Origin: Streptomyces sp. NRRL F-2664
GTDB lineage: Bacteria > Actinomycetota > Actinomycetes > Streptomycetales > Streptomycetaceae
Length of the DNA stretch: 64,000 bases
Direction: 5' to 3'
Assembly: GCF_000719345.1 (NCBI RefSeq)
Contig: NZ_JOFX01000007.1
Span: forward strand, 147,075 to 211,074
Below are positions 1 through 22,414 of the stretch, in pieces; within the stretch, counting starts at the first letter, position 1, and every line of letters starts with the position of its first letter. A program made the position numbers and the translations under genes. The notes below the pieces were generated by a model. The model searched no databases, was not told where the DNA came from, and was given only the letters and a program-made list of their open reading frames with translations.

Positions 1-2
1 TC

Positions 3-1088
3 CTGGTGGCGCTCGGGGCCGTCGCTTCCGCAGCCGTGGGATTCGTGTCCGGCCCTCTGGTGGACCGCTGGGGTTTTAGGGCAACGGCTGCGGCCTCCTA
101 TGCGGTCGGCGGTATCGGAGCGGCGTGCATTCCGGTCGTGCACGCACTGGGGGCGCTGGACTTCCCCGTGCTCGCGGCGCTCGTCGTCGCCGCGAACGCC
201 CTGGACGTGCCGGCCACCGCGGCCGTGACCGGTCTGGTGCCCGAGCTGTCCGCCGACGCGGACATGCCGCTGGAGCGGGGCAACGCGCTGCTCGGCGGAG
301 TGCACCAGGTCGCCCAGCTGTGCGGGCCGCCCCTGGGGGGAGCCGCGGTCGCCCTGTTCGGCGTCGCGCACGTCCTGCTCGTCGACGCGGCGGCCTGCCT
401 CGCGGCGGCGGCCCTCGTCGCCGGCTGCATCACGGCGGGCCGGGCCGGGCCGCGGGGCGCGCGGGCCGTCGGCGGCTACCTGGTCGAGCTGCGGTCGGGG
501 CTGCGGCTCCTGCGCGAGCACCGGCTGCTGCGGGCCGTGGCCTTGTCGGGGACCGCCTTCAACGGGCTGGACAGCGGTCTGGCCGGCGTGGTCCTGGTGA
601 CGTACGCCTACCAGCACCTGGGGAGCGCGGCGAGCCTCGGTGTCCTGCTCACCGCATTCGGGCTGGGTGCGGTCGCCGGCACGGTGGGCTATGCCGTCGC
701 CGGGCACCGGCTCGGAGCCCGCCGGACGTACCTCGGCGCGGGCTTCGGCGTGGCCCTGCTGGTCGGCGCGCTGGCCGCCCTGCCCTCCCTGACCGTGGGA
801 GCCGTCCTGCTCGCGCTGCTCGGCGCCTTCGCCGCTCCGGTGGGCCCGGTGCGGACCGCTGTGCTCCAACGCAGCGTTCCGCACGAGCAGTACGGGCGGG
901 TCACGACGGCCGTCGACACGGCCGGACTGGTCGCCGTCCCGCTGGGGGCCTCGCTGACCGTGGTGCTCGTCGGCGCCGCCGGCCTGCGCCCTGCGCTCGT
1001 GACCCTCGCCTGCGCGTATCTGCTGGTCGTCTGCTGCTGCTGGGCGGCGCCCGCGCTCCGGGGGATGCAGGCCGACCGATCGCCGTGA
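3..1088 (+). CDS. MFS transporter, 5' end outside the window
   Basis: Integral membrane exporter of the major facilitator superfamily, probably for the cluster product. The frame is open from the first in-frame codon of the window. The visible protein begins just before the TM2-TM3 loop (motif A-like GPLVDRWGFR), so TM1 and the true start lie upstream. About ten hydrophobic segments follow, with a basic loop near residue 230 (GHRLGARRTY). It is the last gene of a unit entering from the left and stops 79 nt before the aldehyde-dehydrogenase-like gene. The MFS family call is firm; the substrate is inferred only from the location. Confidence 0.8.
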   Translation: MVALGAVASAAVGFVSGPLVDRWGFRATAAASYAVGGIGAACIPVVHALGALDFPVLAALVVAANALDVPATAAVTGLVPELSADADMPLERGNALLGGVHQVAQLCGPPLGGAAVALFGVAHVLLVDAAACLAAAALVAGCITAGRAGPRGARAVGGYLVELRSGLRLLREHRLLRAVALSGTAFNGLDSGLAGVVLVTYAYQHLGSAASLGVLLTAFGLGAVAGTVGYAVAGHRLGARRTYLGAGFGVALLVGALAALPSLTVGAVLLALLGAFAAPVGPVRTAVLQRSVPHEQYGRVTTAVDTAGLVAVPLGASLTVVLVGAAGLRPALVTLACAYLLVVCCCWAAPALRGMQADRSP

Positions 1089-1093
1089 TAGCC

Positions 1094-1131
1094 ATGACTG
1101 AACTTGACAATCAATGACTGGGGGTTGACGC
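1094..1131 (+). promoter_or_regulatory. Phased TGACT/TTGAC heptamer repeats upstream of the ALDH-like gene
   Basis: Heptamers ATGACTG (1094), TTGACAA (1104), ATGACTG (1114) and TTGACGC (1125) are spaced 10, 10 and 11 bp, so they fall on one face of the helix. Related phased heptamers occur at 9343-9501 and 19045-19068 in the same cluster. The pattern resembles direct-repeat operators of SARP-type activators, although SARP repeats are classically 11 bp apart. No regulator gene is in the window, so the binding protein is unknown. Confidence 0.45.
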
Positions 1132-1166
1132 TGGCTCTCCATGGACTCCGCCCCGAGGAGGGATAC

Positions 1167-2408
1167 ATGAGCTCCGCTCCCGCCTGGCCGACCGCTCTCG
1201 ACGAGCCGGTGCAGGTCCCCGACCCCGGACGGCTGGAGGCACTCCGCGCCGTCCGGGACTTCCTGGCCCGCGACCCCGGCGCCGTCCACGACCTGCTCTG
1301 CGAGATCTCCACGCACCGCGCCGCCGGGTACGAGATCGAGGCGACCATCGCCACGCTGGACGGCGCGCTCGACGAGTTCGAGAGGTACCGGCCGGGCCGG
1401 GTCCCGCGACTGGCGGTCTACATGCCGTCCAACGTCGTCCTCTACTCGTACGCCCTGTACCTGCTGGTGCCCGCCCTCTACGCGGACCGCCTGGTCTTCC
1501 GCCCCTCCAGCCAGGTCAAGGACCAGATGGGCCGGCTGCACCGGCTGCTCGCCGCGCACCACGGGCTGCCGATCGAGCTGACCAACGCCAGTCAGCGGGA
1601 GTTCCTGCGCGAGCACGTACGGCCGGCCGACGTCGTCGTCTTCACCGGCGCCTACCGCAACGCCGAGCAGATCAGGTCCCAGCTCGCCCCGGGCCAGCTG
1701 TTCCTCTTCCTGGGCTCCGGGGTCAACCCCTTCGTCGTCGCCCCGGGCGCCGACCTCGCCAGTGCGGCCCGCGACGCCGTCGAGATCCGGATGCACAACG
1801 CCGGCCAGGACTGCCTGGGCCCCGACCTGTTCTGCGTCCACGAGGACCTCCTCGACGCGTTCCTCGACGCCCTCGTCACCGAGCTCAAGGCCCTGCGCTA
1901 CGGGCCCTACACCGACCCGGACGCCGACTACGGGCCCGTCTTCTACGACGGGGCACTGGAGGAGGCCGCCCAGTTCCTGGCCCGCAACCGCCGCGCCATC
2001 GTCCACGGCGGCCACGTCGACTTCCGCGAGCGCCGCATGGAGCCCACCGTCGTCCTCGGCGAGGAGGTGACGCCGCGGACCCCGGTGCCGGAGTTCTTCG
2101 CGCCGGTCTTCAACGTCGTCGGCTACCGCGACCCGGAGGCCCTGGCGGCCACCCTCACCACCGCGGTGTTCACCGAACGCGCCCTCGGATCGAGCGTCTA
2201 CGGCGACGCCCCCGCCCTCGTCGAGGCCCTGCGACGGCGCACCACCGTCACCGTCGACACCACCCTGCTGTCCATCGACGACGGCAACGCGCCCTTCGGC
2301 GGATACGGGCGGATGGCGAACTACATCACCGACGGCACGCAGATGTGGACCGAACCGGTCCTCGTCTCCAAGGCCGTCGCCGAGCACCTCCCGGCGGCCG
2401 GCCGATGA
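1167..2408 (+). CDS. Aldehyde-dehydrogenase-like protein (atypical, possibly acylating)
   Basis: 413 residues, shorter than typical ALDHs (about 480-500). The start is the ATG after GAGGAGGGA at 1155-1163. The catalytic-cysteine motif is NAGQDCLGPD (Cys216). The C-terminal NAPFGGYGR matches the usual PFGG(Y/F) loop, and PEFFAPVF matches the EE(I/V)FGPV element. The segment corresponding to ELGG reads FLGSG (about 181-185), so the usual general-base Glu is missing. That fits a thioester-forming (CoA- or ACP-acylating) or reductive ALDH better than a hydrolytic one, but this is inference. It overlaps the TPP enzyme by ATGA. The two may make or consume an aldehyde for the acyl chain. Confidence 0.7.
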   Translation: MSSAPAWPTALDEPVQVPDPGRLEALRAVRDFLARDPGAVHDLLCEISTHRAAGYEIEATIATLDGALDEFERYRPGRVPRLAVYMPSNVVLYSYALYLLVPALYADRLVFRPSSQVKDQMGRLHRLLAAHHGLPIELTNASQREFLREHVRPADVVVFTGAYRNAEQIRSQLAPGQLFLFLGSGVNPFVVAPGADLASAARDAVEIRMHNAGQDCLGPDLFCVHEDLLDAFLDALVTELKALRYGPYTDPDADYGPVFYDGALEEAAQFLARNRRAIVHGGHVDFRERRMEPTVVLGEEVTPRTPVPEFFAPVFNVVGYRDPEALAATLTTAVFTERALGSSVYGDAPALVEALRRRTTVTVDTTLLSIDDGNAPFGGYGRMANYITDGTQMWTEPVLVSKAVAEHLPAAGR

Positions 2409-4123: not shown

Positions 4124-4148
4124 ACGACTGCGAGACAAGGACGAGGCA

Positions 4149-5051
4149 ATGGCCGTAGCGCTCTTCTTCCCGGGGCTCATTCCCACCCGGTTCGACGCGA
4201 TCAGCGAGTTCGTCACCACGAACGACCACGCCAGACGCAGATTCGCCGAAGCCGACGAGGTGCTGGGCTACTCCCTGGCCGATGCCTACCGCGAGGCGTC
4301 CATCTACGAATGGGAGGTCTTCGAGAGCGGGTTCATGGCGCTCACCCTCGCCCTCGCCGACTGCGCGCAGGACCGCCACGGCGGCCGGCCCGCCGTCTGC
4401 GGCGGGCAGAGCTTCGGCGCCTTCATGGCCGCCGTCCGGGCCGGGGCCCTGACCTACCCGGACGCACTGGAGCTGATCCGGCGCAGCGTCGCCGTCGAGA
4501 CGGACTACTTCGCGTCGCTGACCGAGCCGATCGGCTGCCACTTCTTCTACCGGCTCCCGCACGACACCGTCCAGCGGCTGGTCGAGGAGACCCGTGCACG
4601 CGGTGAGTGGATCGAGCTGTCGGTGGTCCTCGACGAGGAGGTGCACGCGGTGTCCGCGTCGATGCGCACCCTGGAGCGGTTCGAGCAGCGGGTACGCGAG
4701 GAGGGCGGATTCCCCTTCTACACGATGAACCGCGCCGAGCACTGCTCGGCCGTCTCCGGGCTGCGCGCCCGCCTGCACGACGAGGTCTACGGCACCGTGC
4801 CGTGGAACGCCCCGGACGTCCCGGTCCTGTCCGACGTCGACGGGCGGCTCCTGACCGACCCCGAGGAGATCAAGCAGGACCTGCTGGACGGCTGGACCAC
4901 ACCTGTCCACTGGCAGACCATCCTGCGGGGCCTGCACGCGGCGGAGGTCGACGAGGTGTGGATCCCGGGGCCGCGCAACATGTTCGCGCGGATCACCAAC
5001 AAGTCCATCCCCACCCGGGTGATCACCCCGAAGACGGTGCTCGAAGGGTGA
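4149..5051 (+). CDS. Acyl carrier protein malonyl/acyl-transferase (FabD-like)
   Basis: 300 residues, the usual FabD length. The nucleophile elbow is GQSFG with Ser88, where most family members have GHSxG. His198 in NRAEHCSA fits the catalytic His, and Arg111/112 in ELIRRSV is near the Arg that binds the malonyl carboxylate in FabD. It should load extender or starter units on the ACP encoded at 8033-8278. It lies 25 nt after the TPP enzyme, and its stop overlaps the GTG of the MFS gene (GTGA, 5048-5051). The family is clear; the acyl unit is unknown. Confidence 0.8.
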   Translation: MAVALFFPGLIPTRFDAISEFVTTNDHARRRFAEADEVLGYSLADAYREASIYEWEVFESGFMALTLALADCAQDRHGGRPAVCGGQSFGAFMAAVRAGALTYPDALELIRRSVAVETDYFASLTEPIGCHFFYRLPHDTVQRLVEETRARGEWIELSVVLDEEVHAVSASMRTLERFEQRVREEGGFPFYTMNRAEHCSAVSGLRARLHDEVYGTVPWNAPDVPVLSDVDGRLLTDPEEIKQDLLDGWTTPVHWQTILRGLHAAEVDEVWIPGPRNMFARITNKSIPTRVITPKTVLEG

Positions 5052-6628
5052 GCGCCGGCACGAAGACGCCGACGGACCCGGCGGGCCGCCGTGTCCTGTC
5101 GGCCGCGCTGTTCGCGAGCGCCCCGGCCGAGGTGCTCGACTTCCTGTTACCCCTGTGGGCCGGCTCGACCCTGCGGGCCGGGCCGTCCGTGGTGGGCGCG
5201 CTCATCGCCTTCGAGGCGGTGCTGTCCCTTCTCGTGCGCCCCCTGGCCGGGGAGCTGGCCGACCGTTTCGACCAGCGGCGGGTGGCCGCGGCCGGGGCGG
5301 GACTGTACGCCCTGTCCTTCGCGGGATATGCGCTCGCCGACACCCTGCCGGTGGCCTTCGCCGCGGCCGGCCTGGGCGGCGTGGGCGGCGCGCTGTTCTG
5401 GGTCGCGCTGCGGGCCTGGACCGGACGGGAGGCGGCGGACGGCGACGGGACGGCCGCCTACGGGAAGTTGCTGTCCGCCGAGGGGCAAGGAGCTTTCGTC
5501 GGCTACCTGGTGACGTTCTCACTGCTGGAACGGACCGGCTATCCGGCCCTGTTCTGGCTCGGCGCCGTCGCCTGCGTCCTGGCCATGGCCCTCCTGCTGC
5601 GCGGTCCGGGCGGACGGCCGGCCCGCCCCGCAGCCGGGCGCGACCGCCGGACGCGGGGGCCGCTGCGGCGGGGGGCGGCGGAGCGCCGGCTGCTGCCGCT
5701 GATGGTGGTGTCCGCGGTGACGGCCGCCGCCGAGGCCGGGCTGTGGATGCTGCTGCTGCTGCGGCTGCAGGGGGACCTGGAGCTGTCCCCGAACGAGATC
5801 GCACTGGTCTTCGCCCCCGGTTTCGTGGTGTTCGTGCTGCTGCCGGAGCACACCCACCACCTCACGGACCGGCTGGGCCGCACCCCGACCATGGTCGCCT
5901 CGTTCGCGGCGGGCACGCTGTTCGCGGCGGGACTCGCTGTCGTCGCCACGCCGCTCGCGATCGCCGTGTTCTGGACCGTGGCCGCCGCCTGCTTCGCGGC
6001 ACAGATCCCCGTCGAGCAGGCGACCGTGGCCGCCGCCTCCGGCGGTCGGATCGGCCGGGGCATGGGCCTGTACGAGAGCGCGCGACTGGCCGGTGTTGTG
6101 GTCGGCCCGCTGGTGATGGGCGTGCTCTACGAGCAACTCGGCTGGGTCGCCGCCTGCGCGGCGGCCGCCGTCACCTCCGCCGTGGGGGCGGTCGTGGTGC
6201 CGTTCGCGGTCCGCGTCCTGCGCCTGCCGCCGGAGGGGAAGAGGTCCCGGTCCGCGTCCGCGGCCGGAGCGGGGGCCGGCGCCGCGCCGGAGACCGTACA
6301 CAGGAGAGAGGACGGAGAAGACATGGACACGAGCAAGCCCGAACCGGCGCAGCCCTCGGCGAAGCCCTCGCTGGGCCCCAAGGAGCACGCCCGCAAGGAG
6401 CGCCGGGACTGGTACGTCCACACGGCCGCGTTCGTGCTGGGGCAGCTGGTCCTGTGGGCGCTGGACTCCAGTTGGCTCATATGGCAGATCACCGACGGCA
6501 GCGTGCCCGACGACCAGCGGGGGCCGCTGGTCTGGTTGGGCCGGATCTGGCTGACCATCTGGGTGATCGACACCATCTGGTCGTGGTCGTACACCATTTG
6601 GCCGCGGGAGAAGAAGGCGAAGTCGTAG
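5048..6628 (+). CDS. MFS transporter with C-terminal 2TM domain
   Basis: 526 residues: a 12-TM MFS exporter (about 1-400), a low-complexity Ala/Gly linker (about 400-420) and a C-terminal two-helix domain (about 440-526) resembling the Pfam 2TM domain (DWYVHTAAFVLGQLVLW ... WLTIWVIDTIW). An in-frame ATG at 6323 (codon 426), preceded by GGACGGAGAAG, could start the 2TM part as a separate 101-residue protein. Codon 34 (5147-5149) is TTA, the rare leucine codon read by bldA tRNA in Streptomyces. It is last in the 1167-6628 operon and probably exports the product or confers self-resistance. Confidence 0.75.
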   Translation: MSAGTKTPTDPAGRRVLSAALFASAPAEVLDFLLPLWAGSTLRAGPSVVGALIAFEAVLSLLVRPLAGELADRFDQRRVAAAGAGLYALSFAGYALADTLPVAFAAAGLGGVGGALFWVALRAWTGREAADGDGTAAYGKLLSAEGQGAFVGYLVTFSLLERTGYPALFWLGAVACVLAMALLLRGPGGRPARPAAGRDRRTRGPLRRGAAERRLLPLMVVSAVTAAAEAGLWMLLLLRLQGDLELSPNEIALVFAPGFVVFVLLPEHTHHLTDRLGRTPTMVASFAAGTLFAAGLAVVATPLAIAVFWTVAAACFAAQIPVEQATVAAASGGRIGRGMGLYESARLAGVVVGPLVMGVLYEQLGWVAACAAAAVTSAVGAVVVPFAVRVLRLPPEGKRSRSASAAGAGAGAAPETVHRREDGEDMDTSKPEPAQPSAKPSLGPKEHARKERRDWYVHTAAFVLGQLVLWALDSSWLIWQITDGSVPDDQRGPLVWLGRIWLTIWVIDTIWSWSYTIWPREKKAKS

Positions 6629-6654
6629 CCCTGCCGTACGCCGGCGCGCGGATC

Positions 6655-6681
6655 CGGCCCGGGGCGCCCTGCCCCGGGCCG
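6655..6681. terminator. Bidirectional terminator between MFS and P450 genes
   Basis: A perfect 11-bp inverted repeat (6655-6665 and 6671-6681) with a 5-nt loop sits between two convergent genes, 27 nt after the MFS stop and 15 nt before the P450 stop. There is no T-run, as is common for Streptomyces terminators. Confidence 0.7.
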
Positions 6682-6695
6682 GCGCCCGTCCGGGC

Positions 6696-7925: not shown

Positions 7926-8032
7926 GGTGCCTCCTGGCCCGGGCTCGTACGGTCGAGTCCGGGAGTGGGTGGGTGCGCCGCTCCGGCCCCCGGGTCGGGG
8001 CGGGCCGAAGCAGCGGCGGGAGGAACGGACGG

Positions 8033-8278: not shown

Positions 8279-8380
8279 GGCGGTTACCTCTCTCGGGTTG
8301 TGTGGCGGTGGTGGTGGCTGGGGGGCCGGGGAGCGCGGAGCGGCGCGGGCCGGGTCCGCGGTCGCGGCGGTGGGCGCGGC

Positions 8381-9577: not shown

Positions 9578-10903
9578 ATGGCGCAGACACGGGCTCGTTC
9601 CCGGGAACACGGCGTGGTCATCACCGGCAGCGGTGTCGTCTCCCCCATCGGCTGCACCACCGAGGAGTTCTGGGCCTCGGCCAGGGCCGGCCGCAGCGGG
9701 ATCCGCACCATCACCCGCTACGACGCCGCCACCCTTCCGACGCGGTTCGCCGGCGAGGTCGTGGACTTCGACCCGAAGCCGTACATGCCCAACAAGCAGG
9801 GCCGCCGCCTCGACCGGTACGCCCAGTTCGCCCTCGCCGCCGCCCTCCAGGCGGTGCGGCAGGCCGGACTGGACGTCGACGCCGAACGCGCCACCCGCAC
9901 CGCCGTCCTGGTGGGCTCCGGCTACGGTCCGGGCCAGCTCATGCAGGCGGCCGTCCACGACCTGCGCGACCACGGACGGCGCCGGATGACCCCCTACCTC
10001 GCCTCCAGCGGCTCGCTGGACAGCGCGGCGGGCGAGATCGCCGCCCGGCTCGGTGCGCGGGGCCCCTCCGGTGCCACCGCCACCGCCTGCGCGACCGGCG
10101 CCACCTGCATCGGCGACGCCCTGCGCATGATCCGCCACGGCTACGCGGACGTCGTCATCGCCGGCGGAGCCGACGACGCCGTCAACCCCCTCGACCTCGG
10201 CGCGGCCGCCAACGCCGGTGCGCTCTCCCGCCGCGACGACGAACCCGGCCGGGCCAGCCGCCCCTTCGACCGCGCCCGGGACGGGTTCGTCATGGGCGCC
10301 GGCGCCGGCATCGTCGTCCTGGAATCCGCCGAACACGCCCACCGCCGCGGCGCCACCGTTCTGGCCGAACTGGCCGGCTACGGCGCCACCACCGACGCCT
10401 ACCACTCCACCCACCCCCACCCCGAGGGACTGGCCGCCCGTCAGGCCATGACGGACGCCCTGGACGACGCGGGCGTACGGCCCGAGGAGATCGACCACAT
10501 CTCCGCCCACGGCACCGGCACCCAGCTCAACGACCGCATCGAGAGCGCCTCGATCCGCGCCGTCTTCGGGCGCCACGCCCTGCGCGTCCCGATCAGCTCG
10601 CTCAAGTCGATGACCGGTCACATGATCGGCGCCGCCGGAGCGGTCGAGCTGATCGCCGCGCTCCACACGATCCGCGACGGGATCGTGCCGCCGACCGTGA
10701 ACTGCGACGACCCGGAGGACACGGAACTGGACTACGTGCCGCACACCGCGCGTCCCCACGCCGTGCGCACCGTGCTCAGCAACTCCTTCGGATTCGGCGG
10801 ACACAACGCCGTACTCGTCCTGCGCGCCCCGTCCGGGGGCGCCCCGCAGCCGTCACTGTCCCCGTCCCCGTCCGAGCCGGAGCCCCAGGGAGGGAAGCGA
10901 TGA
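9578..10903 (+). CDS. Beta-ketoacyl-ACP synthase (FabF-like, KS1)
   Basis: 441-residue elongating ketosynthase. The Cys-His-His triad is complete: Cys171 in TACATGATC, His311 in HGTGTQLND and His348 in KSMTGHMIGAAGAV; the C-terminus has the NSFGFGGHNAV signature. The start follows GGGAGGGAGG. It catalyses decarboxylative Claisen condensation on ACP-bound chains. It is the first gene of the 9578-17102 unit and overlaps the lanthipeptide synthetase by ATGA, so acyl-chain and peptide machinery are translationally coupled. It carries a Ser/Pro-rich C-terminal tail of about 20 residues. Confidence 0.93.
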   Translation: MAQTRARSREHGVVITGSGVVSPIGCTTEEFWASARAGRSGIRTITRYDAATLPTRFAGEVVDFDPKPYMPNKQGRRLDRYAQFALAAALQAVRQAGLDVDAERATRTAVLVGSGYGPGQLMQAAVHDLRDHGRRRMTPYLASSGSLDSAAGEIAARLGARGPSGATATACATGATCIGDALRMIRHGYADVVIAGGADDAVNPLDLGAAANAGALSRRDDEPGRASRPFDRARDGFVMGAGAGIVVLESAEHAHRRGATVLAELAGYGATTDAYHSTHPHPEGLAARQAMTDALDDAGVRPEEIDHISAHGTGTQLNDRIESASIRAVFGRHALRVPISSLKSMTGHMIGAAGAVELIAALHTIRDGIVPPTVNCDDPEDTELDYVPHTARPHAVRTVLSNSFGFGGHNAVLVLRAPSGGAPQPSLSPSPSEPEPQGGKR

Positions 10904-13589: not shown

Positions 13590-13676
13590 ATGTCGATCGT
13601 TCTCGACCTGCAGGGCCTTGAGGTCCCCGCCGAGGAGACCACGCGCGTCGCCAGCACCGCCAGCAACCACTGCTGA
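13590..13676 (+). CDS. Lanthipeptide precursor, 28 residues
   Basis: Short ORF with a strong RBS (GGAGAGGAGG, 7 nt before ATG). The leader contains Leu5-Asp6-Leu7-Gln8, the class III leader helix motif recognised by LanKC enzymes. The C-terminus reads V-A-S-T-A-S-N-H-C, so Ser22, Ser25 and Cys28 form the SxxSxxC pattern that gives labionin, or avionin if Cys is oxidatively decarboxylated. Thr17, Thr18 and Thr23 are further dehydration sites. Leader and core share only 28 residues, so the mature peptide may be 8-12 residues, like the short peptides of lipolanthines and goadvionin. It lies after, rather than before, its synthetase gene. Confidence 0.9.
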   Translation: MSIVLDLQGLEVPAEETTRVASTASNHC

Positions 13677-13724: not shown

Positions 13725-13805
13725 TCGTCCATTTCCGCGCGTCACGCGCGTTGTGCGCGCCGGACCGACCCGGCGCCCCCGAAGGACCGTGAGGGAGAGA
13801 CCCGG

Positions 13806-14576: not shown

Positions 14577-14577
14577 C

Positions 14578-15606
14578 GTGCAGCACCTGGGATCCGCCCA
14601 CGGGCCCGACATCACCTTCCTCGGCGTCCCGCGGCTCGACCTGTCCGACCCGCCCGAGGACGCCGACGTGGTCATCCTCGGCGCCCCCTTCGACGGCGGC
14701 ACCTCGCACCGGCCCGGCGCCCGCTTCGGCCCGTCCGCGATGCGCCAGGCCTGCTACCTGCCGCAGAACGGCGCCCGCCGCAGCCTGGCCATGGGCGTGG
14801 ACCCGCTCACCGAACTGAAGGTCTACGACGCCGGGGACGTGCCCTGCTACTCCGGCGACATCGCGCAGAGCATCCGCAGCATCGAGCGGGCGGTGCGGAT
14901 GACGGCCGGGCTCGGCGCGATCCCCGTCGTGCTCGGCGGCGACCACACCATCGCGCTCCCCGACATGCGCGGGCTGGCGCGCCACCACGGCTTCGGGCGC
15001 ATCGCGATGCTGCACTTCGACGCCCACGCCGACACCGGCGAGGTGGAGGACGGCCCGCTGTACGGCCACGGCAAACCGATGCGGCAGCTCATCGAGTCGG
15101 GCGCGGTGCGCGGCGACCGCTTCCTGCAGATCGGGCTGCGCGGCTACTGGCCCGGCCCGCAGACGCTGCGCTGGATGGCCGGCGAGGGCATGCGCTCGTA
15201 CGAGATGTCCGAGATCACCGCGCGCGGGCTGCAGACCTGCCTCACCGAGGCCTTCGCCGTCGCCATGGACGACTGCGACGGGGTGTTCCTGTCGGTGGAC
15301 GTGGACGTCGTCGACCCCGGCCAGGCGCCGGGCACCGGCACACCCGAGCCGGGCGGACTGACCTCCCGCGAACTGCTGGACTCGGTGCGCCGGATCGCCT
15401 ACGAACTTCCCGTGGTCGGCGTCGAGGTCGTCGAGGTGGCACCCCCCTACGACCACGCCGACATCACCGCCTACCTGGGCAACCGGGTGGTCCTGGAGGC
15501 GCTCTCCGGCATCGCCCGCCGCCGCCGCGACCAGGCCCTGGGCACGCACTGGGACCCGCGCACCCCGCTGCTGGAACGGGAAACGCAGGAAGGAGCACAG
15601 CGGTGA
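14578..15606 (+). CDS. Ureohydrolase family protein (agmatinase/guanidinobutyrase-like)
   Basis: 342 residues starting at GTG 14578. All binuclear-manganese ligands of the arginase/agmatinase family are present: His123 in GGDHT, Asp148-His150-Asp152 in DAHAD, and Asp241-Asp243 in SVDVDVVDP. The family hydrolyses a guanidino group to an amine plus urea. Primary arginine or agmatine use would not explain its place between enoyl reductase and acyl ligase genes. Amidinohydrolases are known in polyketide pathways where a guanidino-acyl starter is later trimmed to an amine, so a guanidinoacyl chain is the preferred substrate here (inference). Its stop overlaps the ligase GTG (GTGA). Confidence 0.85.
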   Translation: MQHLGSAHGPDITFLGVPRLDLSDPPEDADVVILGAPFDGGTSHRPGARFGPSAMRQACYLPQNGARRSLAMGVDPLTELKVYDAGDVPCYSGDIAQSIRSIERAVRMTAGLGAIPVVLGGDHTIALPDMRGLARHHGFGRIAMLHFDAHADTGEVEDGPLYGHGKPMRQLIESGAVRGDRFLQIGLRGYWPGPQTLRWMAGEGMRSYEMSEITARGLQTCLTEAFAVAMDDCDGVFLSVDVDVVDPGQAPGTGTPEPGGLTSRELLDSVRRIAYELPVVGVEVVEVAPPYDHADITAYLGNRVVLEALSGIARRRRDQALGTHWDPRTPLLERETQEGAQR

Positions 15607-17102
15607 CCGCGACGACGACCGGCACACCGACCGCCCGGACGGCACCGGCCGCTCCGCCCGGCCGGCCGGCCGCCGCCCCCACCCCCGCGCTGGCCGACGC
15701 GGCCGGCACGCTCACCGGGGCCGCGCTCACCCGCAGGGTGCTCGCCGCCGCGGGGGAGCTGCGCGGACGCGGCGTCGGCCCCGGCGACCGGGTCCTGGTC
15801 AAGGGCGACAACTCCGTCGACTACGTCGTCGCCCTGCTCGCCCTGATGCACCTGGACGCCTCGCTGGTGCCGGTGGACCACCGCCAGACGGCCGCGGACG
15901 GGCGGTTCGCCGCCCGCCGGGCACGGGCGCGCTGGCTGCTGACCCGTCCGGCGGACGCCGCCGACTTCCCCGGCGAGTGCGTGCTGGACTATCCCGGCCT
16001 CGGCGCCCGTTCCACCCCGGCCGACGGGGAGGGCGACGGCGGGGAGGTCGACCTCGCCGCGTGGTTCGCCCGCACCGACGCCGTGGTGCTGTGGTCCTCG
16101 GGGACGACCGGCCCGCCCAAGGGCATCGTGAAGTCCGGGCGCGCCCTCCACGACAACACCCGGCGCACCATTGCCGCCATGGGCTACCGCGCCGACGACG
16201 TGCTGGCCCCGCTGCTGCCCTTCTCCCACCAGTACGGGCTGTCCGTGGTGCTGCTGTGGTGGCTGGCCGGCTGCACCCTGGCCGTCACCCCCTACCAGCG
16301 GCTCGACGTGGCCCTCGCCCAGTCCGTGGAGCACGGCGTCACGGCCGTGGACGCGGCCCCGTCCACCTACCACTCCCTGCTCGGCGTGGTGCGCCGCCGC
16401 CCCGAGCTGCGTGCCGCGCTGCGCCGGGTACGCGTCTGGGGTGTTGGCGGCGCCCCGCTGCCCGCGCCCCTCGCGGAGGCCTTCCCGGCCGTTCTCGGCC
16501 GGCCCCTCCTCGACGGGTACGGACTCACCGAGCTCGGCAACGTCGCGCTGGCCACCCCGCAGGCGCCCACCGGCTGCGGCAGGCCGCTGCCCGGCGTGGA
16601 GGTACGCGTCGTCCGCCCGGACGGCGCACCGGCCGCCCCCGGCGAACTCGGCGGGATAGAGGTGCGCTCACCGGGGTTGATGGAGGGCCGCCTGCGCGAG
16701 GACGGCACGCTCGACCCCGTACCGCAGGGCTCCTGGTACCCGACGGCCGACCTCGGGCACTTCGACGCCGAGGGCCACCTGTACGTCGTCGGGCGCAACC
16801 AGGCCGTGCACCGCTCGGGCTTCACGCTGTACCCGGAGAGCCTGGAGCGCAAGGCCGAGGCCTGCGGCCGGCAGGTCAAGGCGCTGGCGGTGGAGGACCT
16901 GCGGCGCGGCTGCACCCTGCACTTCGTCGTGGCCGACCCCGACGGGGGCTCGCCGGCCCAGTGGCGCCGGCGGATGGCGCCGCACCTGGCGGAATACGAG
17001 CAGCCCAACGCCGTGCACGTCGTCGACCGCTTCCCGCTGAGCGCGAACGGCAAGACCGACACGGCGGCCCTGCGGAGGATGATCGGCGTGGCGGCCGCCT
17101 GA
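15603..17102 (+). CDS. AMP-dependent acyl-CoA/acyl-ACP ligase
   Basis: 499-residue ANL-superfamily adenylating enzyme. The ATP loop is SSGTTGPPKGIVKSG; A5-type DGYGLTELG is present, and the C-terminal catalytic Lys lies in LSANGKTD. The N-terminus (about 35 residues) is Thr/Ala/Pro-rich and may not be folded. It activates a carboxylic acid as acyl-AMP and transfers it to CoA or directly to the ACP. It is the last gene of the KS1-LanKC unit and ends 116 nt before a strong hairpin. Candidate substrates are the starter acid or a free fatty acid. Confidence 0.88.
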   Translation: MTATTTGTPTARTAPAAPPGRPAAAPTPALADAAGTLTGAALTRRVLAAAGELRGRGVGPGDRVLVKGDNSVDYVVALLALMHLDASLVPVDHRQTAADGRFAARRARARWLLTRPADAADFPGECVLDYPGLGARSTPADGEGDGGEVDLAAWFARTDAVVLWSSGTTGPPKGIVKSGRALHDNTRRTIAAMGYRADDVLAPLLPFSHQYGLSVVLLWWLAGCTLAVTPYQRLDVALAQSVEHGVTAVDAAPSTYHSLLGVVRRRPELRAALRRVRVWGVGGAPLPAPLAEAFPAVLGRPLLDGYGLTELGNVALATPQAPTGCGRPLPGVEVRVVRPDGAPAAPGELGGIEVRSPGLMEGRLREDGTLDPVPQGSWYPTADLGHFDAEGHLYVVGRNQAVHRSGFTLYPESLERKAEACGRQVKALAVEDLRRGCTLHFVVADPDGGSPAQWRRRMAPHLAEYEQPNAVHVVDRFPLSANGKTDTAALRRMIGVAAA

Positions 17103-17217
17103 CCGGCCCCCCACTGCGGGCCCGGGTGGCCGGGTCGGCCGCCGGCCGCAGCGCCCGCCCGTCCCGGCCGGACACATCCCGGCCGCCCGCATCCCGTTCG
17201 GCCGCCTCCCCGGTGCC

Positions 17218-17252
17218 GGTCGCTCCGCCCGGCCCCCGCGGGCGGAGCGACC
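17218..17252. terminator. Bidirectional terminator between ligase and KS2
   Basis: Perfect 13-bp inverted repeat (17218-17230 with 17240-17252), 9-nt loop, placed 6 nt beyond the KS2 stop and between two convergent operons. Confidence 0.75.
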
Positions 17253-17258
17253 CGTCCT

Positions 17259-18440
17259 TCACCGCCGCAGCAGGACCAGCGAGGCATTGTTGCCCCCGAA
17301 GCCGAAGCTGTTCACGGCGGCCGTCCGCGCACCGGCGACCTCCATCGGCACCGTGGGCAGCACCACCCGGTCGGTCGGCTCCGGAACGGTGAGGCCGGCC
17401 GTGGGCGCGACCACGCCGCCGCGCAGCGTCCCGGCGGCCGCGGCGATCGCCGGTACCCCGGAGATGTGCAGCAGGTGGCCGATGGCGCCCTTGTGGGAGC
17501 TGACGGGCAGGGCGCGGGCGCCGCAGTCCGCGGCGACGGCCTCGACGGCGGCCAGTTCCGCCGCGTCCCCCTGACCGGTCCCGGTCGCGTGCGCGTGGAC
17601 GTGGTCCAGCCCGTCCACCGAGGCGTCGTCGAGGGCGGCGCGCATGCAGGCCGCGATCCGCCCGGTGTCGGACGCTGCGGACTTGGCGCCGGCCACCCGG
17701 CAGGCCGCGCCGGCGACCACGAGGTCGGCCGCCGCCCCCCGCGCGCGGGCCTGCGCCGCGCCCTCCAGGACGACGGCGCCACCGCCCTCGCCGAGGGAGA
17801 TGCCCGCCCGGTCCACGTCGAAGGGCCGGGCGGCGGTGCGGCCGACGGCCCGGACGACGTCCATGCTGGCGTACTCGTACCGGTTGAGCACCGACGAGCC
17901 GACCACGACGGCCACGGGCGCGGCGCCCGAGCGCAGCAGCTCGCGGGCGTATCCGACGGCGAAGACGGCGGAGGCGCAGGCGTGCGAGAGGTGCGCGGGC
18001 TGCCGGCCGGGGCCTGCGAGGACCCCGGAGAGGACCTCCTCCGGGTCCGGGCCCAGGAACTCCCGTTCGTCGACGGCCCGCCGACCGTGCCACCCGTCAT
18101 CCGGCGGGGGGAGGGGCGCCTGGCCGACGAGGAGCACGGCGGCGCCGTCCGGGAGCCGGGCGAGGCCGGCCGCGTGCAGCGCCTCGCGGAGCGCGGTTCG
18201 CGCGTAGGCGCTCTTGCGGGGGCCCTCCTCCGGCCCCGGTCCCGGCCGCGTCGTCGCGCCTCCCGCCCCCGGCCCCTGCTCGGGGACCTCGCCGACCGGT
18301 TCGCCCCGGTAGGGCGGTGAGGTGAAGCGGCGGGCGGCCGCGAGGGCGGAGCGTCCGCCGAGCAGGCCCCGCCAGTACGGCTCCACGCCCTGGCCGAAGG
18401 GGGTGACGAGGCCGAGGCCGCTGATGACGATGTCGCTCAC
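17259..18440 (-). CDS. Beta-ketoacyl synthase (KS2)
   Basis: 393 residues from GTG 18440. All condensing-enzyme residues are present: Cys155 in SHACASAVF, His284 in HAHATGTGQGD and His322 in SHKGAIGHLL, with a C-terminal NSFGFGGNNAS. It is therefore a competent KS rather than a chain-length factor, which would lack the Cys. The sequence around residues 55-75 is a Gly/Pro-rich insertion. It overlaps the upstream hypothetical gene by 4 nt (18437-18440). Its distance from KS1 in sequence suggests a different chain length or a priming step. Confidence 0.88.
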   Translation of the reverse strand: MSDIVISGLGLVTPFGQGVEPYWRGLLGGRSALAAARRFTSPPYRGEPVGEVPEQGPGAGGATTRPGPGPEEGPRKSAYARTALREALHAAGLARLPDGAAVLLVGQAPLPPPDDGWHGRRAVDEREFLGPDPEEVLSGVLAGPGRQPAHLSHACASAVFAVGYARELLRSGAAPVAVVVGSSVLNRYEYASMDVVRAVGRTAARPFDVDRAGISLGEGGGAVVLEGAAQARARGAAADLVVAGAACRVAGAKSAASDTGRIAACMRAALDDASVDGLDHVHAHATGTGQGDAAELAAVEAVAADCGARALPVSSHKGAIGHLLHISGVPAIAAAAGTLRGGVVAPTAGLTVPEPTDRVVLPTVPMEVAGARTAAVNSFGFGGNNASLVLLRR

Positions 18441-19003
18441 AGGCCGGACGCCTTCCATGCGGTGGCGAGGGCGAGGTGGTCCGCGTCGCGCGGGTCCTCG
18501 CCGGGGACCACGATCAGGTCCAGTACGACGGCGGCCGGGCGCCCGACGCCGACAGCAGGGGTGAACTCCGCGCCCGGCAGCGGTGGTTGCGCCAGCAGGT
18601 AGCAGTCCCCGCGATGCTCGGCGGCGGTCAGCCAGGTGCGCACCAGCTCGGAGGCCTCCATCCCGACGGAGTCCGAGGGCCGCAGCCGGCGGGCGGGGTC
18701 GTGGCAGCGGGCGACGAAGCGCCGGGCTGCCCAGGTGCCGTAGTCGTGGCACAGGACGTACAGCGCGGCCGTCGCGCGCAGGTCCGGCGGCAGCGAGCCG
18801 AAGGCGGCTGCGAGGGCTGCGGAGGCCGCGTCCTGGGGCTTGCGGTGCACGGACGGCGCGGAAGCCGATGCCGCTGCCGTTTCCGCTCCTGCTTCCGCTT
18901 CCACCGCCGTCGGCCACGGGAAGGCGGCCACCCGCGCCCCGTCGGTGCCGGCCAGCGCCCGGTGCCACCGCACGGCGGCGGGCCCCCTGGTTCCTGTCGT
19001 CAT
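18437..19003 (-). CDS. Hypothetical protein coupled to KS2
   Basis: 188 residues from ATG 19003, which follows GAGGGG; an alternative ATG at 19027 lacks an RBS. No family recognised with confidence. There is an Ala-rich linker near residues 35-55 and a central helical region with RATAALYVLCHDYGTW and EASELVRTWL. No signal peptide or membrane helix is apparent. The stop/start overlap with the KS2 gene implies a shared task, for example as a thiolase-fold or hot-dog accessory subunit, but no motif supports a particular fold. It may be cluster-specific. Confidence 0.6.
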   Translation of the reverse strand: MTTGTRGPAAVRWHRALAGTDGARVAAFPWPTAVEAEAGAETAAASASAPSVHRKPQDAASAALAAAFGSLPPDLRATAALYVLCHDYGTWAARRFVARCHDPARRLRPSDSVGMEASELVRTWLTAAEHRGDCYLLAQPPLPGAEFTPAVGVGRPAAVVLDLIVVPGEDPRDADHLALATAWKASGL

Positions 19004-19086
19004 CCCCACCCCTCTACCGAAAGTCATGATCTGTCGAATATGCTCAGTCGGCAGTCAAGTTTTGTCAACGAATGGAAAGGGGAGTC
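19004..19086. promoter_or_regulatory. Divergent promoter region with phased heptamers
   Basis: On the minus strand, TTGACAA (19062-19068) and TTGACTG (19052-19058) are exactly 10 bp apart, followed by CCGACTG (19045-19051). The 17-mer spanning the first two matches the 1104-1120 element at 13 positions. The region lies between the KS2 unit and the glycosyltransferase unit. Confidence 0.45.
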
Positions 19087-20277
19087 ATGCCGCTTCACGT
19101 CGGGTTCGTGGGGATCGCATGGCACGGCCATGTGAACCCCACCCTCGGCCTCGTGGAAGAGCTGGTGCGCCGCGGTCACCGGGTCTCCTACGCAGTGACC
19201 GAGGCGTTCGCCGAGACCGTACGGGCCGTCGGCGCGGAGCCCGTCGTCTACCGCAACCCCGTCGACGACGCCCTCACCGACGACGGCCTGGACATCTCGC
19301 CGACGGACTTCCTGCGGGAGGCCGAGGCCGCCCTGCCCGTGCTGGCCGAAGCCTGGGCCGAGGACCGGCCCGACCTCATCGCCTACGACGGGATCGCCTG
19401 GGCCGGCCGCGTGCTCGCCGCCCGGTGGCACCTCCCGGCCGCCGAGATGTGGCCCTCCTTCGTGTCCAACGAGCACTTCTCCCTGGAGGCGGAGTTCCTC
19501 GCGGACCAGCCGCTGCACCCCGGGGTCCTGCGGTTCGTCCGGGAACTGACCCGGTTCCTCACCGCGCACGGCCTGCCCGCGACCTCCGCCGCCGACTTCC
19601 TCGGCCACACCGAGCCGCTGCGCCTGGTCTTCCTGCCGCGGTCCTTCCAGTACCGCGGGGAGACCTTCGACGACCGCTTCGCCTTCGTCGGCCCCTGCGC
19701 CGGCGAGCGCGGCTTCCAGGGCGGTTGGAGCCCCGCCGCCGACCACCGGCCGGTGCTGCTGATCGCCCTGGGCACCGCCTGCTACGACTGGCCCGACTTC
19801 TTCCGCATGTGCGCCGAAGCGGTCGCCGACCTGCCCTGGCAGGTGGTCATGGCCTACGGCCCCGGGCTCGACCCCGCCGACTTCGGCCCGCTGCCCGACC
19901 ACGTCGACGCCCGGCCGCACTTCCCCCAACTCGCCGTCCTGCGCCACGCCGACGCCTTCGTCACGCACGGCGGCATGGGCAGCACCATGGAGGCCCTCCT
20001 CCACGGGACCCCGATGGTGGCCGTCCCGCAGACCCACGAACAGACCGCCGTCGCCGAGCGCATCGACCGGTTGGGCCTCGGAGTACGCCTCGACCGCGAC
20101 CGGCTGACCGCGCAGACCCTGCGCGAAGCCCTCCTACGGGTCATGGGCGACCCCGGCATCCGCGCCAACGCCGCCCGCATGCGCACCGAACTGCGCTCCG
20201 CCGGAGCCGCTCCCGAGGCCGCCGACCGGCTGGAACGCCTGGCCGCGTCGGCCGCCCCCGCCGCGGCACACACCTGA
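19087..20277 (+). CDS. GT1 glycosyltransferase, macrolide glycosyltransferase (MGT) type
   Basis: 396 residues from ATG 19087, preceded by AAGGGGAG; the in-frame ATG at 19072 is less likely. The N-terminus GFVGIAWHGHVNPTLGL carries the acceptor-activating His of GT-B family 1 enzymes. The C-terminal donor-binding signature is present (HGGMGSTMEALLHGTPMVAVP, about 295-315). MGT enzymes transfer a sugar from a UDP- or dTDP-sugar to hydroxyls of natural products, often for resistance. No sugar-nucleotide biosynthesis genes are in view, so a common donor (UDP-glucose or UDP-GlcNAc) is likely. First gene of the 19087-22414 unit. Confidence 0.9.
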   Translation: MPLHVGFVGIAWHGHVNPTLGLVEELVRRGHRVSYAVTEAFAETVRAVGAEPVVYRNPVDDALTDDGLDISPTDFLREAEAALPVLAEAWAEDRPDLIAYDGIAWAGRVLAARWHLPAAEMWPSFVSNEHFSLEAEFLADQPLHPGVLRFVRELTRFLTAHGLPATSAADFLGHTEPLRLVFLPRSFQYRGETFDDRFAFVGPCAGERGFQGGWSPAADHRPVLLIALGTACYDWPDFFRMCAEAVADLPWQVVMAYGPGLDPADFGPLPDHVDARPHFPQLAVLRHADAFVTHGGMGSTMEALLHGTPMVAVPQTHEQTAVAERIDRLGLGVRLDRDRLTAQTLREALLRVMGDPGIRANAARMRTELRSAGAAPEAADRLERLAASAAPAAAHT

Positions 20278-20322
20278 CCGCCACCCCTCCACCCATCCAG
20301 AACCTTCATTCAGGGAGTCGCC

Positions 20323-21045
20323 ATGCAGGGCAAGCTCGTCAGGCTCGAACGGCCCAGGGACGAGGACTACGAGCTGATGGCCCGGTGGTTCGGGCCCGAC
20401 GCCCCCGCCGCCGTAATGGCCGCCACCGACGGGGACGTCGTCACCGCCGAGGAGTTCCGCCGACTCGACCAGAGCGGCGGCCTGCGCCAGTTCGCCGTCC
20501 GCGACGCCGAGGACCGCACCGTCGGAGCCGTGCACTTCAAGGCCCAGGGGCCGGTCGGCGGCTACGTCCTCGGCGGCGCCATCGGCGACCGCGAACTGTG
20601 GCGCCGAGGCCTGGGCGCCGAGGCCTTCGACCTCCTCATCGACCACCTCTTCCACGCCCGCAACGCCCACCGCGTGCAGTTCACCACGGCGCTCTACAAC
20701 AAGAACGTGCTCCGGCTGGTGACCGGCGTGGGCTTCACCCTGGAGGGCATCCTGCGCGAGTACTTCTACCTCGACGGCCGCCACCACGACGGCGCGGTGT
20801 GGGGCTTGCTGCGCCACGAGTACTACGCGGCCGTCGAGGAGCTCAAGCGCACCGACCCGACCTTCGTCCTGCCGGACGCCGTACCCGAGGCCGACAAGGC
20901 CCAGGCCCGCCGGCTTCTCGCCGAGTACATCGCCGGACCCTTCGGCAAGACCTCGACGGGACTCCTGCTCGACGCCGCCGGTGTGACGGCAGGCGCCGCC
21001 GCCGGGGACGGCGGCCTCGACCGTACGCACGAGGACCAGCGGTGA
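20323..21045 (+). CDS. GNAT-family N-acyltransferase
   Basis: 240 residues. The N-terminal 175 form a RimJ/RimL-like GNAT fold with acyl-CoA-binding segment around RRGLGAEAFDLLI and the C-terminal YNKNVLRLVTGVGF element. Residues 175-240 are an extra tail with no known motif. AGGGAG precedes the ATG. In goadvionin biosynthesis a GNAT enzyme joins the long acyl chain to the lanthipeptide N-terminus, and this gene is the best candidate here for the same step. Alternatives are N-acetylation of an amino sugar or self-resistance acetylation. The stop overlaps the PIG-L gene (GTGA). Confidence 0.82.
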   Translation: MQGKLVRLERPRDEDYELMARWFGPDAPAAVMAATDGDVVTAEEFRRLDQSGGLRQFAVRDAEDRTVGAVHFKAQGPVGGYVLGGAIGDRELWRRGLGAEAFDLLIDHLFHARNAHRVQFTTALYNKNVLRLVTGVGFTLEGILREYFYLDGRHHDGAVWGLLRHEYYAAVEELKRTDPTFVLPDAVPEADKAQARRLLAEYIAGPFGKTSTGLLLDAAGVTAGAAAGDGGLDRTHEDQR

Positions 21046-21806
21046 CCTCGCCGCGCTGGCGCACGGTGGTCCTCTCCCCGCACTTCGACGACGCGGCCCT
21101 GTCCGTCGCCGGCCTGCTGGGCCGGCTGGACGGCCCCGCCGCCGTGGTCACCGTCCACGGCGGCGCCCCGCCCGCAGGCGCCCCCGCCTCCTGGTGGGAC
21201 GCCGGCTGCGGCTTCGCCACGGCCGGGGAGGCCCACCGGGTACGCCTGGAGGAGGACGCGCGGGCCTGCGCCCTCATGGGCGCGGACCAGCTCGCCCTGC
21301 CCAATGCCGACAGTCCGTACCGCGACGGCGGAGCCCCCCTCGCCGGACTGGACGAACTCCTGCGGGAGCTGCACCCCGACACCCGGGTCCTGGTGCCGCT
21401 CGGAACCAACCAGCCGGACCACGCGGCCGTCCGCGACCAGGCGCTCGCCGCACTCGCCGACCCGGCGGGCCCCCGGCCGTACGTCTACGCGGACCTGCCC
21501 TACACGGGCGCCGTGCGCCGGTGGGGCACGGACGCCGCGGTCGAACGCCTGACCGTCGACCCCGCGTACGGGGGCGCGTTGCGCGAGACCGCCGCCCGCC
21601 ACCGGATGCGGGTGGCCTACGACGTCCGCCTCGACGACGCCGAATGGGCCGCCAAGCGCGCCGCCATCGTCTGCCACGGCTCGCAACTCGCCGCAGTGGC
21701 CGTCGGCCACGGCCCGTTCCTGCGCAGGCCCGGCCCCCTCCAGGCCGAACTCGTCTGGGAGCTGGAGCACTCCGCCGACACCCCCGCACACACCCCGGAG
21801 CCCTGA
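21042..21806 (+). CDS. PIG-L family N-deacetylase
   Basis: 254 residues from GTG 21042. The zinc/catalytic motif is SPHFDDAAL (His14, Asp16, Asp17), a variant of the usual AHPDDE, and the second His comes from NQPDHAAV. The family removes N-acetyl groups from GlcNAc-containing substrates. Next to a glycosyltransferase and a NodS-like methyltransferase, deacetylation of an attached GlcNAc is a reasonable hypothesis. Start and stop are both overlapped by neighbours, so the GNAT, PIG-L and methyltransferase genes are tightly coupled. Confidence 0.85.
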   Translation: MTSPRWRTVVLSPHFDDAALSVAGLLGRLDGPAAVVTVHGGAPPAGAPASWWDAGCGFATAGEAHRVRLEEDARACALMGADQLALPNADSPYRDGGAPLAGLDELLRELHPDTRVLVPLGTNQPDHAAVRDQALAALADPAGPRPYVYADLPYTGAVRRWGTDAAVERLTVDPAYGGALRETAARHRMRVAYDVRLDDAEWAAKRAAIVCHGSQLAAVAVGHGPFLRRPGPLQAELVWELEHSADTPAHTPEP

Positions 21807-22414
21807 TGTCCGCCACCCGCCGCACCTCGGTGTCCACCGCGCACTTCGACCGGGCCTACCGCTCCCGGACCGACCCCTGGGGCACCCTCCACAAGCCCTA
21901 CGAGCAGGAGAAGTTCGCCGACACCGCGTCCCTGCTGCCCGCCGGGCGGCGCTTCGGCTCCGCACTGGAGATCGGCTGCGGCGCGGGCGCCCTGACCCGG
22001 CTCCTCGCCCCGCACTGCGAGGAGCTGCTCGCCACCGACTGCTCCGCCGCCGCCGTCGAACAGGCCCGCGCCACCTGCGCGGACCTGGAGGGCGTCTCCT
22101 TCGCGACGCTGCGGGTGCCCGAGGACCTGTCCGACGGACAGGCGGACCTCGACCTCGTCGTCATGTCCGAGGTGGGCTACTACCTGTCGGACGCGGACCT
22201 GCACCTCGCCGCCCGGCGGATCCGCGCCCGGCTGCGGCCCGGCGGCCACCTGCTGCTCGCGCACTGGGTGCACGAGGGGCCCGGGGACGTCATGACCGGC
22301 CGCGGGGTCCACGAGGCGTTCCGTGCCGTTCCGGGGACGGTCCAGGTCGACGGCAGGGACGTGAGCCGCTACGGCGAGACCTACCGGCTGGACCTGCTCC
22401 GGCGCGCACCGTAG
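21806..22414 (+). CDS. SAM-dependent methyltransferase, NodS-like
   Basis: 202 residues. The N-terminal block HFDRAYRSRTDPWGTLHKPY and YEQEKF are characteristic of NodS-type N-methyltransferases. The SAM-binding motif I is ALEIGCGAG (about 52-60), and acidic motif II follows (LLATDCS). NodS methylates the free amine of deacetylated chitooligosaccharide, so a primary amine (sugar, or an omega-amine released by the ureohydrolase) is the expected acceptor. Its ATG shares one base with the PIG-L stop. It is the last gene of the cluster on this side. Confidence 0.85.
   Translation: MSATRRTSVSTAHFDRAYRSRTDPWGTLHKPYEQEKFADTASLLPAGRRFGSALEIGCGAGALTRLLAPHCEELLATDCSAAAVEQARATCADLEGVSFATLRVPEDLSDGQADLDLVVMSEVGYYLSDADLHLAARRIRARLRPGGHLLLAHWVHEGPGDVMTGRGVHEAFRAVPGTVQVDGRDVSRYGETYRLDLLRRAP

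What the first reader, a model, noticed from the sequence alone, without database searches (positions are those of the whole stretch)
1..22414. Lanthipeptide-fatty acyl hybrid cluster with an unusual enzyme set
Seen: LanKC, precursor, ACP, acyltransferase, two ketosynthases, enoyl reductase, ligase, P450, di-iron oxidase, GNAT, two exporters and tailoring genes in five adjacent units. Known: lipolanthines (microvionin) and goadvionin join class III lanthipeptides to fatty-acid or polyketide chains. Inference: this cluster makes a related lipopeptide. The combination of discrete type II enzymes with a ureohydrolase, TPP enzyme, R2-like oxidase and a GT/PIG-L/NodS block does not match a product I know.
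Basis: partly seen in the sequence, partly recalled or inferred. Interest (0 to 1): 0.85.

Follow-up and report, generated by a model that had tools for sequence, protein, structure and literature searches.

The report
Lipid-lanthipeptide hybrid gene cluster
A roughly 24-kb block of genes in a Streptomyces-like bacterium appears to make a small ring-shaped ribosomal peptide joined to a custom-built fatty chain; it belongs to a small family that resembles the lipolanthine antibiotics but seems to lack one of their signature enzymes and carries a chain-building gene set that also occurs beside quite different genes elsewhere.

Summary
In detail: 20 genes in five divergent units, one of them a 28-aa class III precursor (13590-13676) whose last eight residues, ASTASNHC, have the S-x-x-S-x-x-C spacing of the lipolanthine nocaviogua. 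One small gene stays unidentified. The cluster begins about 1.6 kb before the window and ends at 22414. In two cluster-less relatives the flanking primary genes are neighbours, so it is a discrete insertion. Five related loci (with the window, four lineages) keep LanKC, precursor, KS1, KS2, ACP, acyltransferase, ligase, TPP enzyme, dehydrogenase, R2-like oxidase, P450, enoyl reductase and GNAT; arginase, GT, PIG-L and NodS are not at two of them. Best reading: an acylated class III lanthipeptide. It is not a standard lipolanthine: no LanD was found in the cluster, and in one relative two of three precursors carry residues after the Cys, so labionin is likelier than avionin; an unclustered LanD is not excluded. 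The TPP enzyme has Gln for its activating Glu in 11 of 11 loci read. TPP, dehydrogenase, ligase and R2-like enzyme form a portable module also found without LanKC. Starter chemistry is unproven; an arginine-derived amino/guanidino starter is my best guess. New variant of a known kind.

The parts
1..1088 (+). MFS exporter 1 (starts at about -111, before the window)
   Evidence: PF07690 104.8 bits; conserved in G036 and G923
1104..2408 (+). Aldehyde-dehydrogenase-like protein; Cys motif GQDC kept, region of the ELGG Glu divergent (read by eye); start codon uncertain (1104, 1167 or 1209)
   Evidence: PF00171
2405..4123 (+). TPP enzyme with Gln in place of the activating Glu (RDQR)
4149..5051 (+). 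VinK-like acyltransferase between carrier proteins
   Evidence: PF21124 VinK_C; best solved relative 5czc E 2.1e-49, (labelled malonyl transacylase there; that it is VinK is recalled)
5048..6628 (+). MFS exporter 2
   Evidence: PF07690
6696..7925 (-). Cytochrome P450 (FGAGAHYCLG intact)
   Evidence: PF00067
8033..8278 (-). Acyl carrier protein (DSL)
   Evidence: PF00550
8381..9331 (-). R2-like di-iron oxidase (two E-x-x-H motifs)
   Evidence: PF00268; NF006200 78.7 bits, below its cut-off 194
9578..10903 (+). Ketosynthase 1, FabF type
   Evidence: TIGR03150 520.8 bits, cut-off 493.75
10900..13524 (+). LanKC class III lanthipeptide synthetase; start overlaps KS1 stop by 4 bases
   Evidence: NF038151 1021.5 bits, cut-off 575
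13590..13676 (+). Precursor MSIVLDLQGLEVPAEETTRVASTASNHC; core probably ASTASNHC
   Evidence: NF038154
13806..14576 (+). FabI/InhA-type enoyl-ACP reductase; 53% to the second copy in the genome
   Evidence: NF005908 391 bits, cut-off 299
14578..15606 (+). Agmatinase/guanidinobutyrase-type ureohydrolase, metal motifs intact (accessory)
   Evidence: TIGR01230 181.1 bits, cut-off 174.3
15603..17102 (+). AMP-forming acyl ligase
   Evidence: PF00501
17259..18440 (-). Ketosynthase 2, divergent, Cys/His/His present
   Evidence: sequence
18437..18850 (-). Small conserved protein of unknown fold paired with KS2
   Evidence: no family; alignment; model pLDDT 54, not usable
19072..20277 (+). GT1 glycosyltransferase, MGT family (accessory)
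   Evidence: TIGR01426 414.5 bits, cut-off 260
20323..21045 (+). GNAT N-acyltransferase, candidate for joining chain and peptide
   Evidence: PF13302; present in all six loci; relatives
21042..21806 (+). PIG-L deacetylase (accessory)
   Evidence: PF02585
21806..22414 (+). NodS-like methyltransferase (accessory)
   Evidence: PF05401; NF041650 73.4 bits, below its cut-off 300

Best explanation
The cluster makes an N-acylated class III lanthipeptide. Shown from sequence: LanKC with a cognate precursor, a discrete acyl-chain set (ACP, FabF-type KS, divergent KS2, FabI-type reductase, VinK-like acyltransferase, AMP ligase), two oxidases and a GNAT, found together in six loci. Inferred: LanKC phosphorylates and eliminates Ser/Thr and closes a labionin-type ring over S-T-x-S-x-x-C. 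An unclustered protease frees an 8-9 residue core (ASTASNHC). In parallel a 2-oxo acid, possibly arginine-derived, passes through the TPP enzyme, dehydrogenase-like protein and AMP ligase onto the ACP; KS1 extends it with FabI, and with ketoreductase and dehydratase from primary metabolism (S. composti has its own). R2-like oxidase and P450 oxidise chain or peptide. The GNAT moves the chain to the peptide N-terminus. Where present, the ureohydrolase turns a guanidine into an amine, and GT, PIG-L and NodS decorate the product.
For: Six loci hold the core together; KS1 and LanKC overlap; the block is one insertion. Nine of nine precursors (six distinct sequences) carry S-T-[AVI]-S-[NS]-[HNAG]-C; nocaviogua has Avi2/Avi5/Avi8 in an 8-residue peptide with a long acyl chain (PMC10435860). 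S. composti has a FAS1-like dehydratase and a ketoreductase where the others have the arginase, completing a reductive cycle. The GNAT recurs with the acyl module in a locus without LanKC. 8 of 35 GNAT relatives share a longest-contig length with one of the 120 listed (of 220) R2-like relatives, a proxy for lying on the same contig. TPP, dehydrogenase and ureohydrolase resemble 5-guanidino-2-oxopentanoate decarboxylase, semialdehyde dehydrogenase and guanidinobutyrase, the arginine transaminase route (recalled).
Against: No product seen. The TPP enzyme lacks the activating Glu (11 of 11 loci read), scores higher to acetolactate-synthase models than to the guanidino one, and none of the 25 models shown of 54 reaches its cut-off, so it may not be a plain decarboxylase. 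The dehydrogenase is far below every named model shown (best 72.5 bits against a cut-off of 730). Ureohydrolase is not at two of six loci. No transaminase, ketoreductase or dehydratase was called in the window cluster. The relatives without LanKC showed no ureohydrolase in the stretches compared either, so the module may serve another acid.
Confidence: 0.6

Rival explanations
1. A standard lipolanthine: the C-terminal Cys is decarboxylated to avionin by a LanD encoded elsewhere, or by the cluster P450.
For: In window, L006, L007, G036 and L008 the Cys is the last residue, as in nocaviogua. PF02441 proteins exist elsewhere: 4 copies in three of five cluster genomes searched (G000, G042, G923) against 3 in the other two and in each of three cluster-less relatives, so an extra unclustered one is possible. 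The P450 is in all six LanKC loci and was not found in the LanKC-free stretches.
Against: No PF02441 hit on the cluster contigs of G000, G036, G042, G048 and G923 (the S. composti genome was not searched). Two of three G923 precursors have residues after the Cys.
Confidence: 0.27
2. Two neighbouring clusters: a small lanthipeptide locus (LanKC and precursor) inside an unrelated acyl metabolite cluster.
For: The acyl module occurs without LanKC in G518 and in the Mg1-type loci.
Against: KS1-LanKC overlap; same gene set in six loci; single insertion.
Confidence: 0.08
3. FabI and the GT are self-protection genes rather than biosynthetic ones: a drug-insensitive enoyl reductase and an inactivating glycosyltransferase.
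For: FabI is a 53% paralogue of the other copy in the genome; GT1 is in the MGT family and also matches the OleI self-immunity model below its cut-off (330.6 of 700 bits).
Against: FabI lies just downstream of LanKC and the precursor in all six loci; S. composti adds KR and DH beside it, as for chain building. GT1 was not found at two of six loci.
Confidence: 0.12

Closest known systems
Lipolanthines (microvionin, nocavionin, nocaviogua)
   Same: Class III synthetase, short core with S2/S5/C8 spacing, N-terminal long acyl chain with a guanidino end (chain here inferred)
   Different: No LanD found in the cluster; non-terminal Cys in some precursors; TPP/dehydrogenase/ligase/R2 module. No microvionin or nocavionin gene sequence was compared here
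Goadvionins
   Same: Peptide-polyketide hybrid; the 2020 paper's title names an acyltransferase that joins the halves (title seen in reference lists; GNAT family recalled)
   Different: Type I PKS in goadvionin (recalled); here discrete ACP, KS and FabI. GdvG sequence not available for comparison
Labyrinthopeptin-type class III lanthipeptides (recalled)
   Same: LanKC, LDLQ leader motif, S-x-x-S-...-C labionin motif, no LanD
   Different: Short core and a co-occurring acyl-chain set
Arginine transaminase catabolic route (AruI, KauB, GbuA; recalled)
   Same: TPP enzyme, semialdehyde dehydrogenase and guanidinobutyrase resemblance
   Different: No transaminase called; Glu to Gln in the TPP enzyme; dehydrogenase far below the named models shown

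Membership tests
Lipolanthine | Class III LanKC synthetase | tested here: met
   NF038151 1021.5 bits over 575
Lipolanthine | Precursor with class III leader and S-x-x-S-x-x-C core | tested here: met
   9 of 9 precursors in six loci
Lipolanthine | LanD decarboxylase in the cluster, giving avionin at a C-terminal Cys | tested here: not met
   No PF02441 match on the cluster contigs of five genomes; Cys not terminal in 2 of 9 precursors. An unclustered LanD is not excluded
Lipolanthine | Long N-terminal acyl chain made by clustered PKS/FAS genes | tested here: inconclusive
   KS1, KS2, ACP, FabI, acyltransferase and ligase conserved with LanKC; product not observed
Goadvionin-type condensation | GdvG-like acyltransferase joining chain and peptide | not testable with these tools
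   A GNAT is present and conserved, but no GdvG sequence was available
Labionin lanthipeptide | Labionin cross-link | not testable with these tools
   Only the motif and absence of a clustered LanD were tested; needs MS/NMR
Type II PKS with chain-length factor | KS partner lacking the active-site Cys | tested here: not met
   KS2 keeps the Cys (SHACAS) and both His (read by eye)

The most novel reading that the evidence does not exclude
A separate family of acylated labionin lanthipeptides without LanD, whose chain starts from a unit made by a portable four-gene module (Glu-to-Gln TPP enzyme, dehydrogenase-like protein acting on thioesters, AMP ligase, R2-like oxidase) performing chemistry not yet described, which bacteria have combined with at least three kinds of biosynthetic genes.
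Probability: 0.38. Interest if true: 0.75.

Novelty: new variant of a known kind. Interest (0 to 1): 0.58.

Why it matters
Few lipolanthines are reported (12 before nocaviogua A and B, PMC10435860), some with strong activity against resistant Gram-positive bacteria. This family would add members built by discrete fatty-acid-type enzymes, probably with a different ring terminus, and points to an unexplained starter module shared between different biosynthetic settings that could be studied or mined.

Tried and rejected
Fatty-acid genes beside LanKC in Lentzea (L009) were first taken as a relative; the order acyltransferase-FabH-ACP-FabF behind a regulator is what I recall as the primary fatty-acid operon, so it was set aside. 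The other 25 distant LanKC loci show at most scattered weak hits (25-34%) to other cluster genes; many have labionin-type precursors of another shape (a motif scan that can miss some). KS2 as chain-length factor: rejected, active Cys present. Fold of the small protein: model too poor, no fold search made. TPP as clavulanate-type carboxyethylarginine synthase: weaker than many other matches. BbmA, the best solved relative, could not be traced in the papers. Ligase and dehydrogenase had no solved relative at the strict limits used. A phylum sample for true lipolanthine loci gave, apart from the window's own, only LanKC at 41-49% identity in 9 of 306 genomes counting the own (loci not read further), so no side-by-side with microvionin was possible. 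A GNAT hit in G095 (36%) had no other cluster gene around it but a kinase-like hit to LanKC. G088 (dehydrogenase-like, 33%) lies in a different ketosynthase locus. The 'prec' row of the tables was translated one base out of frame and is not used; precursors are taken and the separate G036 line. Note 1 gives the precursor one base too high.

Papers: PMC10435860, part 1 of 4 plus a term search; passages only of PMC7268733, PMC9505594, PMC12159101, PMC6602434, PMC7441235, PMC10373908 and PMC10604976; search listings otherwise. The original microvionin (2018), lipolanthine leader (2020) and goadvionin (2020) papers were not read. No title or abstract start in the listings describes this cluster; the library holds open-licence papers only.
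Full report
What is there. The window is bases 147075-211074 of contig 7 of a 7.98-Mb genome. Gene calling on codon periodicity and profile searches give five units: + MFS1, dehydrogenase-like, TPP enzyme, VinK-like acyltransferase, MFS2; - R2-like oxidase, ACP, P450; + KS1, LanKC, precursor, FabI, ureohydrolase, AMP ligase; - small protein, KS2; + GT1, GNAT, PIG-L, NodS-like. Six gene pairs overlap by four bases (KS1-LanKC, dehydrogenase-TPP, acyltransferase-MFS2, ureohydrolase-ligase, small protein-KS2, GNAT-PIG-L), so the units are probably operons. The cluster runs over the window start: MFS1 begins at about -111 and a regulator-like gene lies at about -1591 to -428; the latter has no Pfam match in the form called.

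Borders. Upstream lies a biotin carboxylase gene (about -5094 to -3331), downstream the 22521 gene, Maf and a carboxyl transferase. Of the four cluster-less genomes I fetched two (G012, G004); in both the biotin carboxylase gene stands next to the homologue of the 22521 gene. In the window genome what lies between about -3331 and 22521 is therefore an insertion, and the GT/PIG-L/NodS unit is inside it.

Relatives. A pattern search with LanKC in 84,980 species genomes returned 29 loci. Three are close: S. virginiae NRRL ISP-5094 (92%), S. rimosus NRRL WC-3904 (79%), S. composti SBST2-5 (78%). The R2-like protein added G036 (95% identical DNA to the rimosus locus over 9.9 kb) and G923 (LanKC 65%), whose second part lies on another contig. 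R2-like hits of at least 81% identity were in 4 of 392 genus genomes, the own included, and in 2 of 287 family genomes (G048 is in both). Counting near pairs once, there are four lineages: virginiae type (window and L006, 87-92% DNA identity), rimosus type (L007, G036), composti, G923. All six loci have LanKC, precursor, KS1, FabI, AMP ligase, dehydrogenase, TPP, acyltransferase, MFS2, ACP, R2, P450, KS2, small protein and GNAT. Ureohydrolase, GT1, PIG-L and NodS occur in the window, L006, L007 and G036 and were not found at the L008 or G923 loci (rest of those genomes not searched for them); two lineages each way are too few for a statistic.

Precursors. Nine peptides (six distinct) in six loci all carry S-T-[AVI]-S-[NS]-[HNAG]-C at or near the end. 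In seven the Cys is last; in two of three from G923 it is followed by Q or GQ. Nocaviogua's peptide is Ala1-Avi2-Val3-Ser4-Avi5-Asn6-Gly7-Avi8 (PMC10435860), the same 2-5-8 spacing as A-S-T-A-S-N-H-C. AviCys-type ends need a flavin Cys decarboxylase, LanD (PMC10373908 passage). No PF02441 protein lies on the cluster contigs of the five genomes searched. Copy numbers genome-wide are 4, 3, 4, 3 and 4 in G000, G036, G042, G048 and G923 and 3 each in three cluster-less relatives, so an extra unclustered one in three genomes cannot be ruled out. A labionin with a free carboxylate is the simpler reading; a P450 or unclustered LanD is possible.

Acyl chain. KS1 is a FabF-type enzyme, and the FabI-type reductase is 53% to the other copy in the genome, so it is not a recent duplicate. 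The window cluster has no ketoreductase or dehydratase of its own, but S. composti has both where others have the ureohydrolase, which argues that a chain is elongated and reduced. KS2 keeps its catalytic triad and is not a chain-length factor.

Module. Dehydrogenase, TPP enzyme, AMP ligase and R2-like protein recur in two other settings. In G518 (GC 62%; thought to be a Rubrobacter because names a R. radiotolerans relative at 45% on a contig of nearly the same length) they lie with VinK, GNAT, KS1 (55%), FabH, ACP, FabZ-like, ketoreductase and PPTase genes and no LanKC hit. In Streptomyces sp. Mg1 plasmid pSMg1-3 and G240, G302, G933 and G1047 they lie with KS2 and mostly a relative of the small protein, in the Mg1 record beside AsnB, TauD, ATP-grasp and other genes, without a LanKC hit in the stretches read. 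The Mg1 ligase is an AMP-binding protein by annotation and Pfam but gave no match to the window ligase at 1e-5; gene calls in G302 are fragmentary and its dehydrogenase and ligase were not called. In all 11 loci where the TPP site was read (G302 not among them) the activating Glu is Gln (RDQR). What this module makes is the main open question. The resemblance of the TPP enzyme, dehydrogenase and ureohydrolase to the arginine transaminase route, and the guanidino chains of known lipolanthines, make an arginine-derived amino or guanidino starter my best guess (about 0.35), not a result.

Function of the rest. GNAT as the joining enzyme rests on family and presence in all six loci. GT, PIG-L and NodS could add a sugar, deacetylate it and N-methylate it, as in Nod-factor logic (recalled), or the methyltransferase could act on the chain amine; neither is tested. 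The GT could equally be for self-protection.

Verdict. The finding is real, its description accurate and its inference mostly right; the departures from lipolanthines and the shared module are the new points. On rereading the calls I lowered confidence slightly (0.62 to 0.60; novel case 0.40 to 0.38; avionin rival raised to 0.27) because three of five cluster genomes carry one PF02441 copy more than the controls. No product evidence exists here.

Noticed in passing
L099:840-1286 and 1403-2392 (G518): A 148-residue open frame with repeated segments (two copies of a ~45-residue unit holding FSYSNW, plus one FSYGNW) and an adjacent 329-aa protein, both without a Pfam match, stand beside the acyl module; possibly a multi-core peptide precursor and its enzyme.
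   Followed up: partly
L106 (Streptomyces sp. Mg1 plasmid pSMg1-3), G240, G302, G933, G1047: A recurring cluster without a LanKC hit that holds TPP, KS2 and R2-like genes (dehydrogenase and ligase too where called); in the annotated Mg1 record also AsnB, TauD, aldolase, PrpF and ATP-grasp genes; product unknown to me.
   Followed up: partly
window 2405-4123: TPP enzyme whose activating Glu is Gln in each of the 11 loci read; unusual for the acetolactate synthase family.
   Followed up: partly
G000:C1:462820-465360 and G000:C38:18988-20022: The same genome has a second LanKC-like gene (47%) and a third LanC-like domain.
   Followed up: no
L009:4727-8100: In Lentzea waywayandensis a LanKC gene lies beside what looks like the primary fatty-acid operon (recalled order); a trap for hybrid-cluster predictions.
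   Followed up: partly
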